This document shows positions 990-5,382 of a DNA stretch of 5,382 nt, in pieces. The stretch comes from Clostridia bacterium (GTDB taxonomy: Bacteria; Bacillota_A; Clostridia; Oscillospirales; Acutalibacteraceae), in NCBI GenBank assembly GCA_024699005.1, contig JAILQN010000057.1:1-5382 (forward strand), given 5' to 3'. The notes under the pieces were generated by a model. That model did no database searches, had not been told where the DNA came from, and saw only the letters and a program-made list of their open reading frames with translations. Both the position numbers and the translations under genes were made by a program. Numbering within the stretch: position 1 is the first letter of the stretch; each line of letters opens with the position of its first letter.

Positions 990-1102
990 GATACGAAGCG
1001 AAGAGCCGTCGCTTCCGCGGCATGGGCTTCGCTCTGACAAGACGCGGCCGTTATACAATCAGGGTTTTGCTCAAATCTGTTGCTGTATGCGTCTTTCTGT
1101 TT
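990..1102 (-). ncRNA. Candidate structured RNA element directly downstream of rtcB
   Basis: Starting four bases after the rtcB stop codon, the minus strand carries a copy of the 23-nt block that also opens the Y-like RNA. It is followed by a 7-bp pairing AAGACGC (1095-1089) with GCGTCTT (1045-1039), exactly as in the upstream RNA but with a 43-nt loop instead of 76. Just beyond it, GCGAAG (1034-1029) can pair with CTTCGC further downstream, enclosing a small CGC-GGAA-GCG hairpin. There is no tRNA-like domain and no U-tract here. It may be a second small Y-like RNA, a processing signal in the mRNA, or a recombination scar. Confidence 0.3.
1080..1102 (-). repeat. 23-bp direct repeat, distal copy (after rtcB)
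   Basis: The block, on the plus strand TTGCTGTATGCGTCTTT followed by C, then TGTTT, matches 4215-4237 at 22 of 23 positions in the same orientation. The two copies flank the Y-like RNA, DUF2828 gene and rtcB, about 3.1 kb apart. Each includes one arm of an AAGACGC/GCGTCTT inverted repeat. Confidence 0.7.
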
Positions 1103-1105
1103 TCG

Positions 1106-2338
1106 TTATCTCTTCTTCCACGGCAGTTCGTCGTCGGACGCCTTGAAATTATAAACGGGTTTCATGATATCGACGATATCCACCGATTCTTTTATCACGT
1201 CGATTATATCGTCAATGGATTTGTACGCCATGGGAGCCTCGTCGATCGTCCGCTCGCTGACGGAAGTCGTGTAGATGCCTTTCATAGCGGCTCTGTATTC
1301 TTTGAGACCGATCTGCTCCTTCGCCTTCGTCCTTGACATTATCCTGCCGGCGCCGTGGGGAGCGGAGTAATTCCACTCGGGATTTCCCCTGCCGATTGCG
1401 AGAACAGAGCCGTCCCTCATATTTATCGGGATAAGGACCCTTTCCCCCGCGTGCGCCGCGATGGCGCCTTTGCGCAGGATCATCTCGCCGGTATCGATAT
1501 AATTGTGGATAGTATGGAATGCGTCCAGGGCGGTCATCCCGGTCCTTTCAAGCATGATCTCCGCCATCTTTTCCCTGCTTCTGCAGGCGAACCTCTGGCA
1601 GATCTCCACGTCGTGCAGATAATCCTCAAGAAACGGGCCGTAAAGCCAGCAGATATCCTCGGGCACGCAGGGAGTTTTTGCGTTGTATTCCTTTTCAAGC
1701 GATTTAAGAGCCTTCTGGATCTCGGCCCGTCTTCCGTTCTTTTTGTATGTGCGGATGATCTCTTCTCTCCTGCGGAAATAATCTTCCTTTCCGGAATGCA
1801 GGTCGACCGCGAGTTTCTGATAGATCTCGGCGACCTGTTTCCCGAGGTTCCTGCTCCCGGAGTGGATAACGAGATATAAAACGCCGTCTGACGCCCTGTC
1901 GATCTCTATAAAATGATTCCCGCCGCCGAGCGTCCCGAGGGAACGCTCCAGCCTTCTGGTATCGCGCAGAGACCGGAAGCATTTGAGTCGCGTCAGGTCG
2001 AATCTCTCTATCCGTCCCTCCCACGTGTTCATCCCGGAAGGGATAAAATGCGCGGCTGCGTCTATTCTCTCAAAATCCGGTTCCGTTCCGGCAAGCCGGA
2101 CGGTATACATGCCGCATCCGATGTCCACGCCGACTATGTTGGGACACGCCTTGTCCGTGACGGTCATGGTGGTGCCTATGGTGCAGCCCTTTCCGGAATG
2201 CACGTCCGGCATTATGCGGACGCGGCTGCCCTCCGTCAGCGCGTAATCGCACATCCGTCTGATCTGTTCGACCGCTTCTTCTTCAACCACCTTTGCGTAG
2301 CAAACGGCGGTATTCATTTTTCCTTTTATCTCAAACAT
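1106..2338 (-). CDS. rtcB: RtcB RNA-splicing/repair ligase
   Basis: Cytoplasmic GTP- and Mn2+-dependent ligase that joins RNA 2',3'-cyclic-phosphate or 3'-phosphate ends to 5'-OH ends; in bacteria it repairs cleaved tRNA and rRNA. The 410 residues match the usual length of about 400. Visible family motifs are PDVHSGKG (44-51), VGVDIGCGM (69-77, metal ligands Asp72 and Cys75), GNHFIEI (140-146, His142), HSGSRNLG (159-166, His159), HNYID (278-282, His278), RKGAIAAHAGE (289-299) and APHGAGRIMSR (326-336), whose His328 aligns with the guanylated histidine of E. coli RtcB. DEAPMAYKSID follows near the C-terminus. A charged, helical segment lies around 180-225. I kept the first ATG because the MxEIKGK start is typical of this subfamily as I recall it, although the ATG seven codons in has a better ribosome site (AAAGGA). 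It lies 206 bp after the DUF2828 gene on the same strand. No RtcA, archease or PrfH gene is seen. Confidence 0.95.
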   Translation of the reverse strand: MFEIKGKMNTAVCYAKVVEEEAVEQIRRMCDYALTEGSRVRIMPDVHSGKGCTIGTTMTVTDKACPNIVGVDIGCGMYTVRLAGTEPDFERIDAAAHFIPSGMNTWEGRIERFDLTRLKCFRSLRDTRRLERSLGTLGGGNHFIEIDRASDGVLYLVIHSGSRNLGKQVAEIYQKLAVDLHSGKEDYFRRREEIIRTYKKNGRRAEIQKALKSLEKEYNAKTPCVPEDICWLYGPFLEDYLHDVEICQRFACRSREKMAEIMLERTGMTALDAFHTIHNYIDTGEMILRKGAIAAHAGERVLIPINMRDGSVLAIGRGNPEWNYSAPHGAGRIMSRTKAKEQIGLKEYRAAMKGIYTTSVSERTIDEAPMAYKSIDDIIDVIKESVDIVDIMKPVYNFKASDDELPWKKR

Positions 2339-2404
2339 TTTTCTTTTCTTGTCCCGTATGTTTTGAATTGTCCGGCGACAGGCGGCAAGCCGAAGTCCGC
2401 GGAT

Positions 2405-2439
2405 CTGTAGCCTGTCACCTGTTACCTGTAACCTGACAC
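2405..2439. repeat. Heptamer tandem repeat CTGTNNN, first cluster (5 units)
   Basis: Five consecutive 7-bp units start at 2405, 2412, 2419, 2426 and 2433: CTGTAGC, CTGTCAC, CTGTTAC, CTGTAAC, CTGACAC. The cluster lies in the 206-bp gap between the DUF2828 gene and rtcB. It shares the 18-mer CTGTCACCTGTTACCTGT with the second cluster. Confidence 0.75.
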
Positions 2440-2485
2440 CATTCGCGCGGCGCCCGCTTATTGATGCCGTTATCCTGACCGCGCG

Positions 2486-2540
2486 CTGTTCTCTGTTCGC
2501 TGTTTACTGTTTGCTGTGACTGTCACCTGTTACCTGTCAC
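2486..2540. repeat. Heptamer tandem repeat CTGTNNN, second cluster (8 units)
   Basis: Eight units start at 2486, 2493, 2500, 2507, 2514, 2520, 2527 and 2534; the fifth is one base short. CTGT is invariant and the last three bases vary (TCT, TCG, TTA, TTG, GA, CAC, TAC, CAC). The array ends five bases before the stop codon of the DUF2828 gene. On the message strand the units read NNNACAG. Between the two clusters GCGCGG (2445-2450) and CCGCGC (2479-2484) form an inverted repeat. Confidence 0.75.
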
Positions 2541-2544
2541 ACAG

Positions 2545-4035
2545 CTAAGCTGCGATCTTCGCATAGCGCTCGCTTCCGAGCGTCTCCGTCATGAACGCAT
2601 AAGGAGAAAGGATCCCTCCCGCGATCATGGAGAACAGGCGCGGAGTCACGCCCGAAACCAGAGCCACGCCCTGTTCGTTCTGCTTCACGGGCTGCTGAGG
2701 TTGTCTGCCCGCGACGTTCCAGAACACTATCTGCGGCAGCTCATACCCCTTAGCTCTGAATTTCGCGGCGGCGTTTTCGAAGTTGGTGGCGGAAGCGTTA
2801 TACACGCACCGGTCGAATTCCATATCGGAAATAATGACGAGTTTCGCGGGAAGCTCTTCCTGAGTCGCCTTGTTTTTGACGGCGGCCGCAAGGATCAGAT
2901 CGAACACGGCCTCAAGATTCGTGTTGGCGACCTCGCTGAAAGTTGCCGCGTAACGGAGCCTGTCGACGAAGGTCTCGCCTTTGAGTTCTATCAGCTGCGG
3001 GCTTGCGGAGAATTCGATAAAACAGTTCCCGAACGCGCCGCGGCTGCGCTCCGCGAAATACAGCCCGAGTGAAAGCGCAACGGCGGCGGGCAGCGGTTTC
3101 ATGTTCCAGTACATGGAGCCGGACGTGTCGATCACCGCGAGAGCGTTGTCATCGTATCCGAAATCCGGCATCGACGCCCATGTGGCGTTCAGTGCGTCTT
3201 TTTCCTCCGGAGTCACGGCTTTCATATGACTGTTGTCATTTCCTTTCCAACCTCCGTTCAGATACGGAGCGACAAGCTCGTAAGGCGCCACGTTGTCGGC
3301 GTGCAGTACGGCTTTACCGGAAGCGACCGCTTTCAAAAAAGCCTGATAACGCTCATTGTCGTTGCGCATAAAGGCTTTTCTGTACTTGAACATCGCCCTG
3401 GAGGGCTGCTTTGCATAGTCGAAGGTATAATCCTTCTCCCGGAGATTGTTTTCTATGATGTTGAGCCTTGCCCGCAGCACGGACAGAGACTTTCTGTATT
3501 CCGCGTCCGACAGGCCAAGCGTCCGCGCGATCTTCTTTCCGAGTCTGTTGGTTTCCGGATTCGACGCGTTGACGGAAGGCAGCCATTTGGCTAGAAGAGA
3601 TACATCTTTGTTCTCTTTCAGCGCCGCCACGTCTTCCTCATACTGTTTTACGATCACGGCGAGCGCTTCTTTCTCGCAGGGCGTGTTCATAAGCGAAAGC
3701 AGGTCGTCGTAACGGCCGTATTCCGCGACGTATCCAAGATTCTTTTTCACGCTCCCGGGCTCGTTTTCGGCGAGCCATTTCAGGATCACCCTGAACACGC
3801 GGTGCTCCCCGAGACCGCCCCTGACGTCTCTTGCGAAAAAGAGTATCTTCATTGCCGTGTCGGGGTCTTCCGCATACGCGCGGACGAATCTTTTTATGAT
3901 ATCCTCTTTGCTTTGGCTGCGCAGGGCTCCGACGGCGGCGAACAGATCGAGACAATACGAACCGGTAGAGCGGTACGTGACCGCGCCGTTCTCGGTAAGA
4001 GTCAGATCCGCTTCCTTTTTTACGTATTCAAGCAT
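2545..4035 (-). CDS. DUF2828-family Ro60/TROVE-like protein (helical repeat plus vWA domain)
   Basis: Predicted cytoplasmic RNA-binding scaffold. Positions count from the upstream ATG (4044). The N-terminal helical part carries the DUF2828 signatures ENGAVTYRSTG (18-28), LDLFAAVGALR (32-42), RDVRGGLGEHRVFR (72-85) and EYGRYDD (108-114); AKWLPS (152-157) and KYRKAF (220-225) follow. From about 300 comes a von Willebrand A domain with an intact MIDAS: AVIDTSGSM (Asp306, Ser308, Ser310), Thr375 in ANTNLE and Asp407 in VIISDMEFD. The layout is the same as in Ro60 proteins (helical TROVE ring closed by a vWA domain), so a Ro-like role is inferred. The ATG at 4035 is preferred because AAAGAG lies nine bases upstream, while it abuts the ATG at 4044. 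It starts about 20 bp after the Y-like RNA and precedes rtcB, matching Salmonella rsr-yrlBA-rtcBA. Its RNA ligand is not proven. Confidence 0.85.
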   Translation of the reverse strand: MLEYVKKEADLTLTENGAVTYRSTGSYCLDLFAAVGALRSQSKEDIIKRFVRAYAEDPDTAMKILFFARDVRGGLGEHRVFRVILKWLAENEPGSVKKNLGYVAEYGRYDDLLSLMNTPCEKEALAVIVKQYEEDVAALKENKDVSLLAKWLPSVNASNPETNRLGKKIARTLGLSDAEYRKSLSVLRARLNIIENNLREKDYTFDYAKQPSRAMFKYRKAFMRNDNERYQAFLKAVASGKAVLHADNVAPYELVAPYLNGGWKGNDNSHMKAVTPEEKDALNATWASMPDFGYDDNALAVIDTSGSMYWNMKPLPAAVALSLGLYFAERSRGAFGNCFIEFSASPQLIELKGETFVDRLRYAATFSEVANTNLEAVFDLILAAAVKNKATQEELPAKLVIISDMEFDRCVYNASATNFENAAAKFRAKGYELPQIVFWNVAGRQPQQPVKQNEQGVALVSGVTPRLFSMIAGGILSPYAFMTETLGSERYAKIAA

Positions 4036-4044
4036 TTTTATCAT

Positions 4045-4050
4045 CTCTTT
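4045..4050 (-). promoter_or_regulatory. Ribosome binding site of the DUF2828 gene
   Basis: AAAGAG on the minus strand directly abuts the ATG at 4044 (no spacing) and lies nine bases before the in-frame ATG at 4035, favouring the latter as the start. It begins two bases after the U-tract of the upstream RNA, so the RNA 3' end and the gene leader are almost contiguous. Confidence 0.5.
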
Positions 4051-4052
4051 GT

Positions 4053-4084
4053 AAAAAACAAGGCACCCCGGGATTTGAACCCGG
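4053..4084 (-). terminator. 3' end of the Y-like RNA: GC-rich T-arm/acceptor followed by U6
   Basis: The T-arm hairpin (4084-4068) stacked on the acceptor 3' strand is followed by one G and six T (4058-4053). This can act as an intrinsic terminator, leaving a free RNA 3' end. DUF2828 and rtcB would then be expressed by read-through. Termination here is inferred. Confidence 0.45.
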
Positions 4085-4135
4085 AATGATCCGCCGGAGC
4101 GGAGGGGTTTCCAGATGGTTTGCTGCAGGTGCCTT
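4060..4135 (-). other. tRNA-like domain (acceptor stem and T-arm, no anticodon loop)
   Basis: Acceptor: AAGGCACC (4135-4128) pairs perfectly with GGTGCCTT (4067-4060). T-arm: CCGGG and CCCGG around TTCAAAT, which fits the tRNA T-loop consensus exactly. A U follows the acceptor strand, as at position 8 of tRNA. The D-arm is only a 3-bp CAG/CTG stem with an 8-nt loop lacking the GG pair. In place of an anticodon arm is TCCGC-TCCG-GCGGA, a 5-bp stem with a 4-nt loop. No CCA is encoded. It cannot decode, so it is a tRNA mimic or a degenerate tRNA. Confidence 0.75.
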
Positions 4136-4214
4136 TACTCAAGACGCTGCCTTCCGGCGTTTCGGACCGGAGGTTACTCCGGAGAGTCGTCCCCGGTCTC
4201 AGAAGATCCGCAAA

Positions 4215-4237
4215 TTGCTGTATGCGTCTTTTTGTTT
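4215..4237 (-). repeat. 23-bp direct repeat, proximal copy (start of the Y-like RNA)
   Basis: Matches 1080-1102 at 22 of 23 positions; the only difference is T versus C at base 18 of the plus-strand reading. It contains the 5' arm AAGACGC of the 7-bp stem closed at 4147-4141. A further CAAAT lies next to it in both copies, offset by four bases. Confidence 0.7.
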
Positions 4238-4347
4238 ACAACAGAATGATACCGCAATCACGTGGGGAAATCACGGAAAAAAAGTTGCGAACAGAGAAAC
4301 ATCGTTTTTTTTGGTTCACGGATAATTGTGGGATGACTAAGAAATCA

Positions 4348-4609: not shown

Positions 4610-4667
4610 CATGATAATATTGTTTTGCCGCGGTTGCAGCGAATACATTGAACGCCGGTCAGATCAC

Positions 4668-4813
4668 GTGCCGAAGGCACATATCACATCCGAAGGATAT
4701 ATCGCATATTCCGCAGGAATATATATCGCCTGAACGTCTGCGATATATCGCCTGCGGCGATGCGATATGCGCTCACTGTGCCCGCGCGCGATATGTTCGG
4801 CTCCGCCGAACAT
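4668..4813. repeat. Array of short hairpins separated by ATATC-type spacers
   Basis: In order: GTGCC-GAA-GGCAC (4668-4680), ATCC-GAA-GGAT (4688-4698), ATATTCC-GCA-GGAATAT (4706-4722), palindrome GCGATATATCGC (4740-4751), CGCC-TGC-GGCG (4749-4759) and TGTTCGGC-TCC-GCCGAACA (4794-4812, one more A-T pair outside). Stems differ but the layout is constant: 3-nt loops and spacers such as ATATCAC or ATATCGC. It lies in the 3' non-coding region of the GH36 gene. Similar arrays occur, as I remember, dispersed in Clostridia genomes. Confidence 0.65.
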
Positions 4814-4844: not shown

Positions 4845-5382
4845 CTATCCGGCAGCGCGGTAGATCAGGATCGCCGCCTTCGGCGCTCCGGCGACCGGCA
4901 CGTCGATCCCTTCGGTCATCAGCGCTCCGCCGGTCATCACCGTGATATCCTCGTGGTGATCGTCGTCGAAAACTTCATATTCCAGATCGGGGTCAAGGCC
5001 GTTCAGCACGATGCGGCACACGTCGGCAGAAACCTTTTCTCTTTTATAGATCAGCGCCGCGCCGCCGGTTTCGTCGCCGTACTGCATCGCAAGGTATTTG
5101 TCAGGGGCGCGGGCGCCGTAGATCAGCGGGTAATAATTCTTCGTCATCGATTCGCGGACGAAACGGTAGCCGAGCACCGTCTGCGCGCAGGGCACGATCG
5201 CGGAACGGTAACGGTATTCTCCGTCGCCGCCGATGCCCGTGCCGTGCAGAGGCAGCCAGAAGGATATGCCGTAGGTGATCGACTGCGTCGCCTCGATGAT
5301 ATCGTCGGGCAGTCTGCCGTCCGAGCTCATACAGTTGTAGTCCGACCGCCAGAGCGGGATGCTGCGGCGCGTCATCTCGAGA
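4845..5382 (-). CDS. C-terminal part of a GH36-family alpha-galactosidase
   Basis: The frame enters from the right edge and ends at TAG 4847-4845, giving 178 residues. It begins LEMTRRSIPLWRSDYNC, the segment that directly follows the catalytic Cys-x-x-Gly-Gly-x-x-Asp region in GH36 enzymes (usually ...D.ETM.RRSVPLWRSDY). ITYGISFWLPLHGTGI (33-49) and YRSAIVPC (about 56-63) are further GH36-type motifs. The last 80 or so residues form the C-terminal beta-sandwich, with the typical LNGLDPDLEYEV, TGGALMTEGI and AAILIYRAAG. The enzyme removes terminal alpha-galactose from oligosaccharides such as raffinose or melibiose; the acid/base and nucleophile aspartates lie outside the window. The in-frame Met at 5375 is internal, not the start. 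No signal for linkage to the RNA module is seen. Exact substrate is not determinable from this part. Confidence 0.88.
   Translation of the reverse strand, partial: LEMTRRSIPLWRSDYNCMSSDGRLPDDIIEATQSITYGISFWLPLHGTGIGGDGEYRYRSAIVPCAQTVLGYRFVRESMTKNYYPLIYGARAPDKYLAMQYGDETGGAALIYKREKVSADVCRIVLNGLDPDLEYEVFDDDHHEDITVMTGGALMTEGIDVPVAGAPKAAILIYRAAG

What the first reader, a model, noticed from the sequence alone, without database searches (positions are those of the whole stretch)
1039..4237. Y-like RNA, DUF2828 Ro-like protein and RtcB in one cassette
A tRNA-mimicking RNA lies about 20 bp upstream of a vWA-containing DUF2828 gene, followed by rtcB. Salmonella has the equivalent trio with a TROVE protein (rsr-yrlBA-rtcBA). 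Here the Ro partner is DUF2828, a family with no assigned RNA ligand that I know of. If the RNA is its partner, this would be a distinct Ro-RNP-like RNA repair or surveillance system. The genes are visible in the sequence; the functional link is inferred.
Basis: partly seen in the sequence, partly recalled or inferred. Interest (0 to 1): 0.85.

Follow-up and report, generated by a model that had tools for sequence, protein, structure and literature searches.

The report
Ro-like RNP with tRNA-mimic RNAs
A bacterial gene cluster joins a distant cousin of the human Ro60 autoantigen, an RNA-repair ligase and small RNAs of which many relatives imitate tRNAs, and the same paired RNA-and-protein kit, with an RNA signature not found in the RNA catalogue, turns up in other bacteria and phages, which makes its suspected role in tRNA damage testable.

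The parts
4271..4291 (-). promoter-like element TTCGCAACTTTTTTTCCGTGA; TATCAT at 4251-4246 may be the -10 box
   Evidence: same element (degenerate pattern written after seeing the loci) in 36 of 80 related loci plus the window, none on the other strand; in 24 of the 36, and in the window, 33-41 nt before a unit
4140..4230 (-). RNA unit A: stem AAGACGC/GCGUCUU, AU, ACAGCAA, long structured insert, G
   Evidence: model R1 match 4232-4138, E 7.1e-6; fold z -3.15
4059..4135 (-). RNA unit B: stem AAGGCAC/GUGCCUU (plus one C-G), CU, GCAGCAA, insert with a tRNA T-arm (CCGGG-UUCAAAU-CCCGG), G; 23 nt before the probable DUF2828 start
   Evidence: model R1 match 4137-4057, E 9.3e-6; fold z -3.10 (the minimum-energy fold does not show the T-arm, the centroid shows a shortened one); aligned with 27 relatives
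2545..4044 (-). DUF2828/DUF7788 gene: predicted Ro60-type protein (helical ring + vWA with MIDAS residues); probable start 4035
1106..2338 (-). rtcB: RNA ligase RtcB
1038..1095 (-). RNA unit C, 10 nt behind the rtcB stop codon; its 5' end repeats that of unit A (23-nt direct repeat, 96%)
   Evidence: model R1 match 1097-1036, E 7.2e-7; repeat D5; fold alone not striking, z -1.65

Best explanation
The cassette encodes a Ro-like ribonucleoprotein for tRNA damage. The DUF2828 protein, a divergent Ro60 homologue, holds a set of dedicated small RNAs by their shared handle: the 7-bp end stem, two free bases and ACAGCAA. What each RNA carries on the handle differs: in relatives a near-whole tRNA core, a bare anticodon stem-loop, a T-arm or other hairpins. 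My mechanism: the RNP shows closed tRNA mimics that cannot be charged to enzymes that bind or cut tRNA (anticodon nucleases of phages, defence systems or rivals), as decoy and perhaps as sensor; RtcB, probably made from the same operon, reseals cut tRNAs and possibly cut mimics; in many relatives a WYL-type regulator may switch the operon on. Phages would carry the kit to blunt tRNA-cutting host defence. Shown by computation: RNA family, covarying stem, link to DUF2828, predicted Ro60 fold, tRNA and anticodon-loop mimicry in a part of the inserts, rtcB synteny, shared promoter-like element. Inferred: protein-RNA binding (about 0.85), role in tRNA damage (about 0.7), decoy or sensor mode (about 0.4).
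Against: No binding or expression data for the window. Most inserts show no canonical anticodon loop and no tRNA call, so mimicry may not be the job of every unit; in the window it is one T-arm. In 17 of 80 loci no rtcB lies in the DNA held, and phages such as Silverleaf, F336, VRE9_3 and S-CoN_Ph5 have units but no RtcB annotated within 2.5 kb. Of 14 named phage and plasmid loci 3 gave no model match and 5 no exact 7-nt pattern. Two genomes have a unit without DUF2828. Anticodons are varied, so no single nuclease is pointed at. In Listeria phage CKA15 the most transcribed noncoding region (26,236-26,727) holds no ACAGCAA unit.
Confidence: 0.65

Rival explanations
1. Y-RNA-style tether or gate: the RNAs link or gate the Ro-like protein to a host nuclease or chaperone (as Deinococcus Rsr-Y RNA-PNPase), and the tRNA-like insert only docks or stabilises the partner.
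For: Same predicted protein fold and a like layout, end stem plus variable part; the tether role was reported for Deinococcus Rsr (as told in PMC7790460, passages).
Against: A tether would be expected to keep one docking module; inserts vary in fold and anticodon, and up to 8 units stand in one locus.
Confidence: 0.25
2. Cis-acting leader: the hairpins regulate translation or transcription of DUF2828-rtcB in the same transcript, the protein binding its own leader.
For: In 56 of the 78 loci with units the nearest one ends within 60 nt of the start of the DUF2828 match; in the window unit B is followed by T6.
Against: Arrays of up to 8 units, some spread over 1 kb; in mycobacteriophage Silverleaf, Staphylococcus phage S-CoN_Ph5 and Felixounavirus EcoM2 the units found lie behind the gene; the window has one behind rtcB; tRNA mimicry is not needed for this.
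Confidence: 0.08
3. Cassette array or mobile hairpins: tandem hairpins with private arms are recombination sites or mobile elements, not RNAs.
For: Tandem arrays; a 23-nt repeat at both ends of the window's cassette.
Against: Units are almost only on the strand of DUF2828 (241 to 1 and 137 to 0), a part of the inserts folds as tRNA pieces, and all 31 model matches in 18 genomes sit at the DUF2828 locus (matched by coordinates).
Confidence: 0.04
4. Odd tRNA genes: the units are precursors from which working tRNAs are cut.
For: ARAGORN of 208 bacterial and 7 of 50 viral inserts as tRNAs.
Against: 184 of 208 and 43 of 50 inserts get no tRNA call; the end stem and ACAGCAA are kept in units with no tRNA call.
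Confidence: 0.03

Closest known systems
Salmonella rsr-yrlBA-rtcBA operon
   Same: Ro protein, small RNAs of which YrlA has a tRNA-like domain, and RtcB in one locus (PMC7790460, passages)
   Different: DUF2828 in place of TROVE Rsr; another RNA family with a covarying handle and ACAGCAA, up to 8 units; no rtcA recognised in the window (three ORFs tested with Pfam); WYL-type neighbour in 38 of 76 loci where Salmonella has RtcR (CARF, sigma-54)
Bacterial Y RNAs (Deinococcus Yrn, YrlA)
   Same: ends of the RNA pair (recalled for Y RNAs), tRNA mimicry, gene beside a Ro-fold protein
   Different: no Rfam match at threshold; R1 finds nothing at 14 TROVE loci. The 2014 Y RNA survey was not held, so its mycobacteriophage RNAs, and whether known Y RNAs show anticodon loops, could not be compared
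Listeria phage CKA15 CKA15_055 and putative Y RNAs (PMC12282133)
   Same: same DUF2828 family; the authors got Rsr as best HHpred match, found the protein in purified particles and proposed that abundant noncoding transcripts near by may be Y RNAs (passages and section 8)
   Different: in the passages seen no RNA family, motif, stem or tRNA mimicry is defined; the one region whose place is given holds no unit; the three units found here lie between CKA15_056 and CKA15_055
TROVE proteins of jumbo phages as RNA-repair platforms (PMC7824862)
   Same: passages propose a Ro/TROVE RNP with a tRNA-like partner beside RNA ligases in some jumbo phages
   Different: TROVE, not DUF2828; in the passages seen no RNA is identified
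Phage Ro60, e.g. Thermus phage phiLo (PDB 9l5y)
   Same: Ro fold in a phage
   Different: TROVE family; its locus L195 has no R1 match

Membership tests
Ro60/Rsr (TROVE) protein | helical-repeat ring plus vWA over the whole chain | tested here: met
Ro60/Rsr (TROVE) protein | common ancestry with TROVE detectable by profile | tested here: met
   hhalign of 62 DUF2828 against 12 TROVE: 98.8%, E 6.8e-17, 424 columns; all 12 match Pfam TROVE
Ro60/Rsr (TROVE) protein | match to the Pfam TROVE model PF05731 | tested here: not met
   none listed at E <= 1; so it is filed as Ro-like, a sister family, not as TROVE
Ro60/Rsr (TROVE) protein | vWA MIDAS residues DxSxS...T...D | tested here: met
   D306, S308, S310, T375, D407 invariant in 62 sequences (motif recalled)
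Ro60/Rsr (TROVE) protein | binds Y RNA and misfolded RNA | not testable with these tools
   needs pull-down
bacterial Y RNA | stem made by the two ends of the RNA | tested here: met
   pairing beyond re-dealt arms with no pairing asked for; all 7 pairs covary and the stem is picked, both on rows that I chose. True RNA ends are not known
bacterial Y RNA | match to a catalogued RNA family | tested here: not met
   no match at threshold to the units: window, only mascRNA-menRNA at E 3.6 on unit B; 10 loci, only tRNA and ROOL
bacterial Y RNA | tRNA-like module | tested here: met
   in a part of the relatives: 24 of 208 and 7 of 50 inserts; in the window only a T-arm, ARAGORN none
tRNA gene | cloverleaf called by ARAGORN in the window | tested here: not met
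   0 genes
RtcB RNA ligase | family match and metal/guanylylation motifs | tested here: met
   Pfam E 1.6e-56; the cysteine, GGGNHF, HSGSR and HGAGR stretches align to solved RtcB 4dwr (roles recalled)

The most novel reading that the evidence does not exclude
Bacteria and phages keep an exchangeable library of tRNA decoys: a Ro-like protein holds many RNAs by one standard handle (7-bp stem plus ACAGCAA), and the cargo on the handle, whole tRNA cores or single anticodon loops with chosen anticodons, is swapped under selection by tRNA-cutting weapons. Cut decoys are resealed by the linked RtcB, so the decoy mends itself, and the cut form may be the signal that opens the operon.
Probability: 0.35. 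Interest if true: 0.95.

Novelty: new variant of a known kind. Interest (0 to 1): 0.85.

Why it matters
It gives DUF2828, found by tblastn in 673 of 50,697 phage records and named hypothetical, RNA-binding, vWFA or Ro-like in the rows listed, its likely RNA partners. It defines a searchable RNA family in Clostridia and in phages of Gram-positive, Gram-negative and mycobacterial hosts. It offers many natural experiments on what the tRNA mimicry of Ro RNAs is for. It also warns that tRNA finders call some such inserts as tRNA genes.

Tried and rejected
Rejected or rated low: a leader element (units behind genes and in arrays); chance (strand counts, shuffles); a plain tRNA operon; DUF2828 merely sharing a vWA domain with Ro (the alignment spans model residues 10-479). 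Led nowhere: single-protein scans of viral contigs with the window protein and a TROVE protein confirmed no relative; profile search of DUF2828 against PDB sequences gave nothing at E <= 1 and three weak, unconvincing hits up to E 5. Two of seven folds (L003, L030) were given with the 5' arm cut off by mistake and are not used; the L170 fold there had 7 of 200 shuffles as good.

Weak points. One search used 28 sequences (window and 27 of 80 loci) that I picked after the unit scan and cut by offset alone. A4 has 69 rows picked because their arms pair: 74 were drawn at random from 130 short units, and I left out 5 of the 74 by hand (one each from L060, L061, L140, L146, L154). Its 100% pairing is by construction. 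R1 was trained on units from these loci, not on the window; its genome searches score only the best first-look candidates (at most 150 or 18 a genome). In one search places were set against locus ranges by coordinates, by eye; contig length was checked only for G001 and G013. Counts in the viral set include some near-identical contigs (225 sites, 185 distinct). TROVE control stretches are shorter (1.5 or 3 kb flanks). Three of the 291 genomes match DUF2828 below its cut-off and are counted as without it. In one search, units of L168 and L170-L172, and those of a Listeria phage contig like L166, were in the training set; L085 and L175 are near copies.

Papers. PMC7790460, PMC12282133, PMC7824862, PMC7765460, PMC4012209, PMC11208441 were seen as passages (PMC12282133 also section 8); other papers only as search listings, of which the top 10-20 were shown. 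The 2014 Y RNA survey, two Y RNA reviews and the 2016 RNA-repair survey were not held; what is said of them is recalled. Statements that something was not found in print rest on the searches in open-licence PMC papers only.
Full report
WHAT IS THERE. The minus strand of the window reads, in order: a promoter-like element (4291-4271), RNA unit A (4230-4140), RNA unit B (4135-4059), a DUF2828/DUF7788 gene (ORF 4044-2545, probable start 4035), rtcB (2338-1106) and RNA unit C (1095-1038). The genes are firm (Pfam; RtcB motifs). A covariance model made without the window (R1) finds these three places and nothing else up to E 10.

THE RNA FAMILY. Eighty bacterial loci with a DUF2828 54-72% identical to the window's were fetched (117 relatives were found, the best 80 kept). 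Most carry Clostridia-type labels; two are labelled Chloroflexi, one Fusobacterium naviforme, and a few only 'uncultured bacterium' or Bacillota. Their upstream regions hold tandem units: AA-N5-NN-ACAGCAA, insert, complement of N5, TTG. A scan found 280 on the strand of the gene and 1 on the other, with 4, 0 and 2 in Markov controls; three of the 280 are the window's. Within 1.7 kb upstream, 78 of 80 loci have 1-8 units, 264 in all. Of the other two, L071 has variants of the motif and L070 has a unit further off. With no pairing asked for, ACAGCAA occurs 243 times forward and 4 times reverse in 117 kb, about 7 expected. 207 of 243 have the exact complement plus TTG, against a mean of 51 and a maximum of 64 in 200 re-deals of the arms. 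A plain MAFFT alignment of 28 upstream stretches, from loci that I picked after the scan and cut by offset, gives RNAalifold exactly this stem, with no broken pair at 7 of 8 positions and double changes at four. On 69 units of both groups all 7 pairs covary, 129 double-change cells against 28.6 in shuffles; those rows were picked for pairing, so only the variety of pairs counts there.

PHAGES AND PLASMIDS. Eighty viral contigs with a 37-46% identical DUF2828 (335 found, the best 80 kept, some near-identical) show 225 forward and 2 reverse ACAGCAA upstream, in 67 of 80 loci; a control stretch downstream has 17 and 12. 104 of 185 distinct sites pair over six bases, against a mean of 15.6 and a maximum of 24 in 300 re-deals. 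Over whole loci, RCAGCAA sites with a 7-nt complement plus G number 241 to 1 by strand in the bacterial set (74 of 80 loci) and 137 to 0 in the viral set (58 of 80). Of 14 named phage and plasmid DUF2828 loci, 11 have R1 matches at E <= 1, all 32 on the gene's strand; L169, L173 and L174 have none. By the stricter pattern it is 9 of 14, 24 sites to 0. Several of these loci are not independent of the model (see Tried and rejected). The helix search shows a 6-bp version in L169, an 11-bp version in L173 and none in L174. Hosts of loci with matches include Listeria, Bacillus, Staphylococcus, Enterococcus, Campylobacter, Escherichia and Mycobacterium. In Silverleaf, S-CoN_Ph5 and EcoM2 the units lie behind the gene.

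SPECIFICITY. In 18 whole genomes all 31 matches at E <= 0.01 fall, by coordinates, inside the DUF2828 loci; 3 of the 18 had none at that limit. In 291 genomes of one class, DUF2828 is over its cut-off in 12 and R1 matches 13 at E <= 0.001. The overlap is 11 of 12, against 2 of 279 without (Fisher 3.5e-17; 1.6e-14 without the two genomes that had given loci). In all 11 the RNA lies beside the gene on its strand, within about 2 kb. The two extra genomes hold a unit with no DUF2828 in the stretch fetched. By pattern they give one hit on each strand, which I take for chance; the + hit is in the Rhizobium locus L199. Rfam 15 has no family that reaches its threshold on the units, apart from tRNA on some inserts.

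THE CARGO. Inserts are unlike one another, but parts of tRNA recur. 60 of 271 units (the window's counted in) hold a T-loop-like stretch. Hairpins with a 7-nt loop [CT]TNNNA[AC] on at least 5 pairs occur in 46 of 269 bacterial inserts (shuffled mean 1.5, maximum 4 of 40) and in 27 of 130 viral inserts (1.6, 7). Seven is the favoured loop size, to which T-loops also add. ARAGORN calls a tRNA in 24 of 208 and 7 of 50 inserts over 45 nt, and in none of five shuffles each. Under that loop pattern, which asks for A at position 37 and may catch a few T-loops, the third anticodon base is U in 50 of 75, A in 23, C in 1 and G in 1 (counted by me from the tally). U36-A37 and A36-A37 are the settings of t6A and i6A tRNAs (recalled). 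The window's inserts show a T-arm (unit B) but no canonical anticodon loop.

THE OPERON. rtcB lies behind DUF2828 on the same strand in 54 of 80 loci, 48 of them 14-215 nt off; it lies before it in 9, and not in the DNA held in 17, several of these at contig ends. In a few loci (L059-L061) only part of rtcB aligns. The element TTCGCAACTTTTTTTCCGTGA, in a degenerate pattern, precedes the array in 36 of 80 loci and in the window, never reversed; in 24 of the 36 it is 33-41 nt before a unit. The gene before the array is related to WYL/WCX regulators in 38 of 76 loci looked at. Of 10 tested with Pfam, 8 show WYL or WCX at E <= 0.001, 4 at or over the cut-off. In the window no such gene was seen next to the array. 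WYL domains are predicted sensors of nucleotides or nucleic acid (PMC4012209, passages).

HOW IT LIKELY WORKS. See the best explanation. Fold and synteny place the kit with Ro-RNA repair systems. The cargo suggests that the RNAs stand in for tRNAs. A mimic whose acceptor end is closed into a protein handle could not be charged but would still show an anticodon loop, which fits a decoy or sensor for anticodon nucleases, with RtcB to reseal. That Salmonella's operon answers to cut tRNAs (PMC7790460, title, listed abstract and passages) and that a DUF2828 protein was found in purified particles of a Listeria phage (PMC12282133) agree with this; neither proves it.

WHAT IS NEW. The link Ro-like protein plus Y RNA plus RtcB is known in kind. 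Phage annotators already call this protein Ro-like or RNA-binding, one paper proposed Y RNAs near one, and a survey proposed TROVE plus tRNA-like RNA as a repair platform in jumbo phages. Not found in the searches named, which covered open-licence papers only: the RNA family with its handle, its spread over bacteria and phages, its tie to DUF2828, and the anticodon-loop cargo. I therefore rate it a new variant of a known kind, with high interest because it makes the purpose of Ro-RNA tRNA mimicry testable.

Noticed in passing
window 4656-4731 (-): Gut-1 RNA, 51.8 bits, over Rfam's gathering score; another structured RNA about 0.4 kb upstream of the array.
   Followed up: no
window 4271-4291 (-) and 36 related loci: Conserved promoter-like element TTCGCAACTTTTTTTCCGTGA before the arrays; its regulator is unproven.
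   Followed up: partly
L002, L013, L022, L053, L060, L073, L077, L080 and others, gene before the array: WYL/WCX-type regulator genes next to 38 of 76 arrays, in same-strand (29) and opposite-strand (9) forms.
   Followed up: partly
L018 3074-3648 (+): ROOL RNA (314 bits) in one locus with 23 ARAGORN tRNA calls, rtcB, DUF2828 and units.
   Followed up: no
L003, L016, L017, L018, L020, L025, L030 and others: ARAGORN calls tRNA genes that lie inside units, a likely source of wrong tRNA annotation.
   Followed up: yes
window 2412-2540: Repeats of CTGTCACCTGTTACCTGT between DUF2828 and rtcB, unexplained.
   Followed up: no
L182 and L188: Units in two genomes without DUF2828 in the stretch fetched: orphan units or contig ends.
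   Followed up: partly
phage CKA15, L166: DUF2828 protein CKA15_055 was detected in purified phage particles (20 peptides, 57% coverage) by the authors of PMC12282133; a delivered RNP is conceivable.
   Followed up: no
window 4845-5381 (-): C-terminal end of a glycosyl hydrolase family 36 gene.
   Followed up: no
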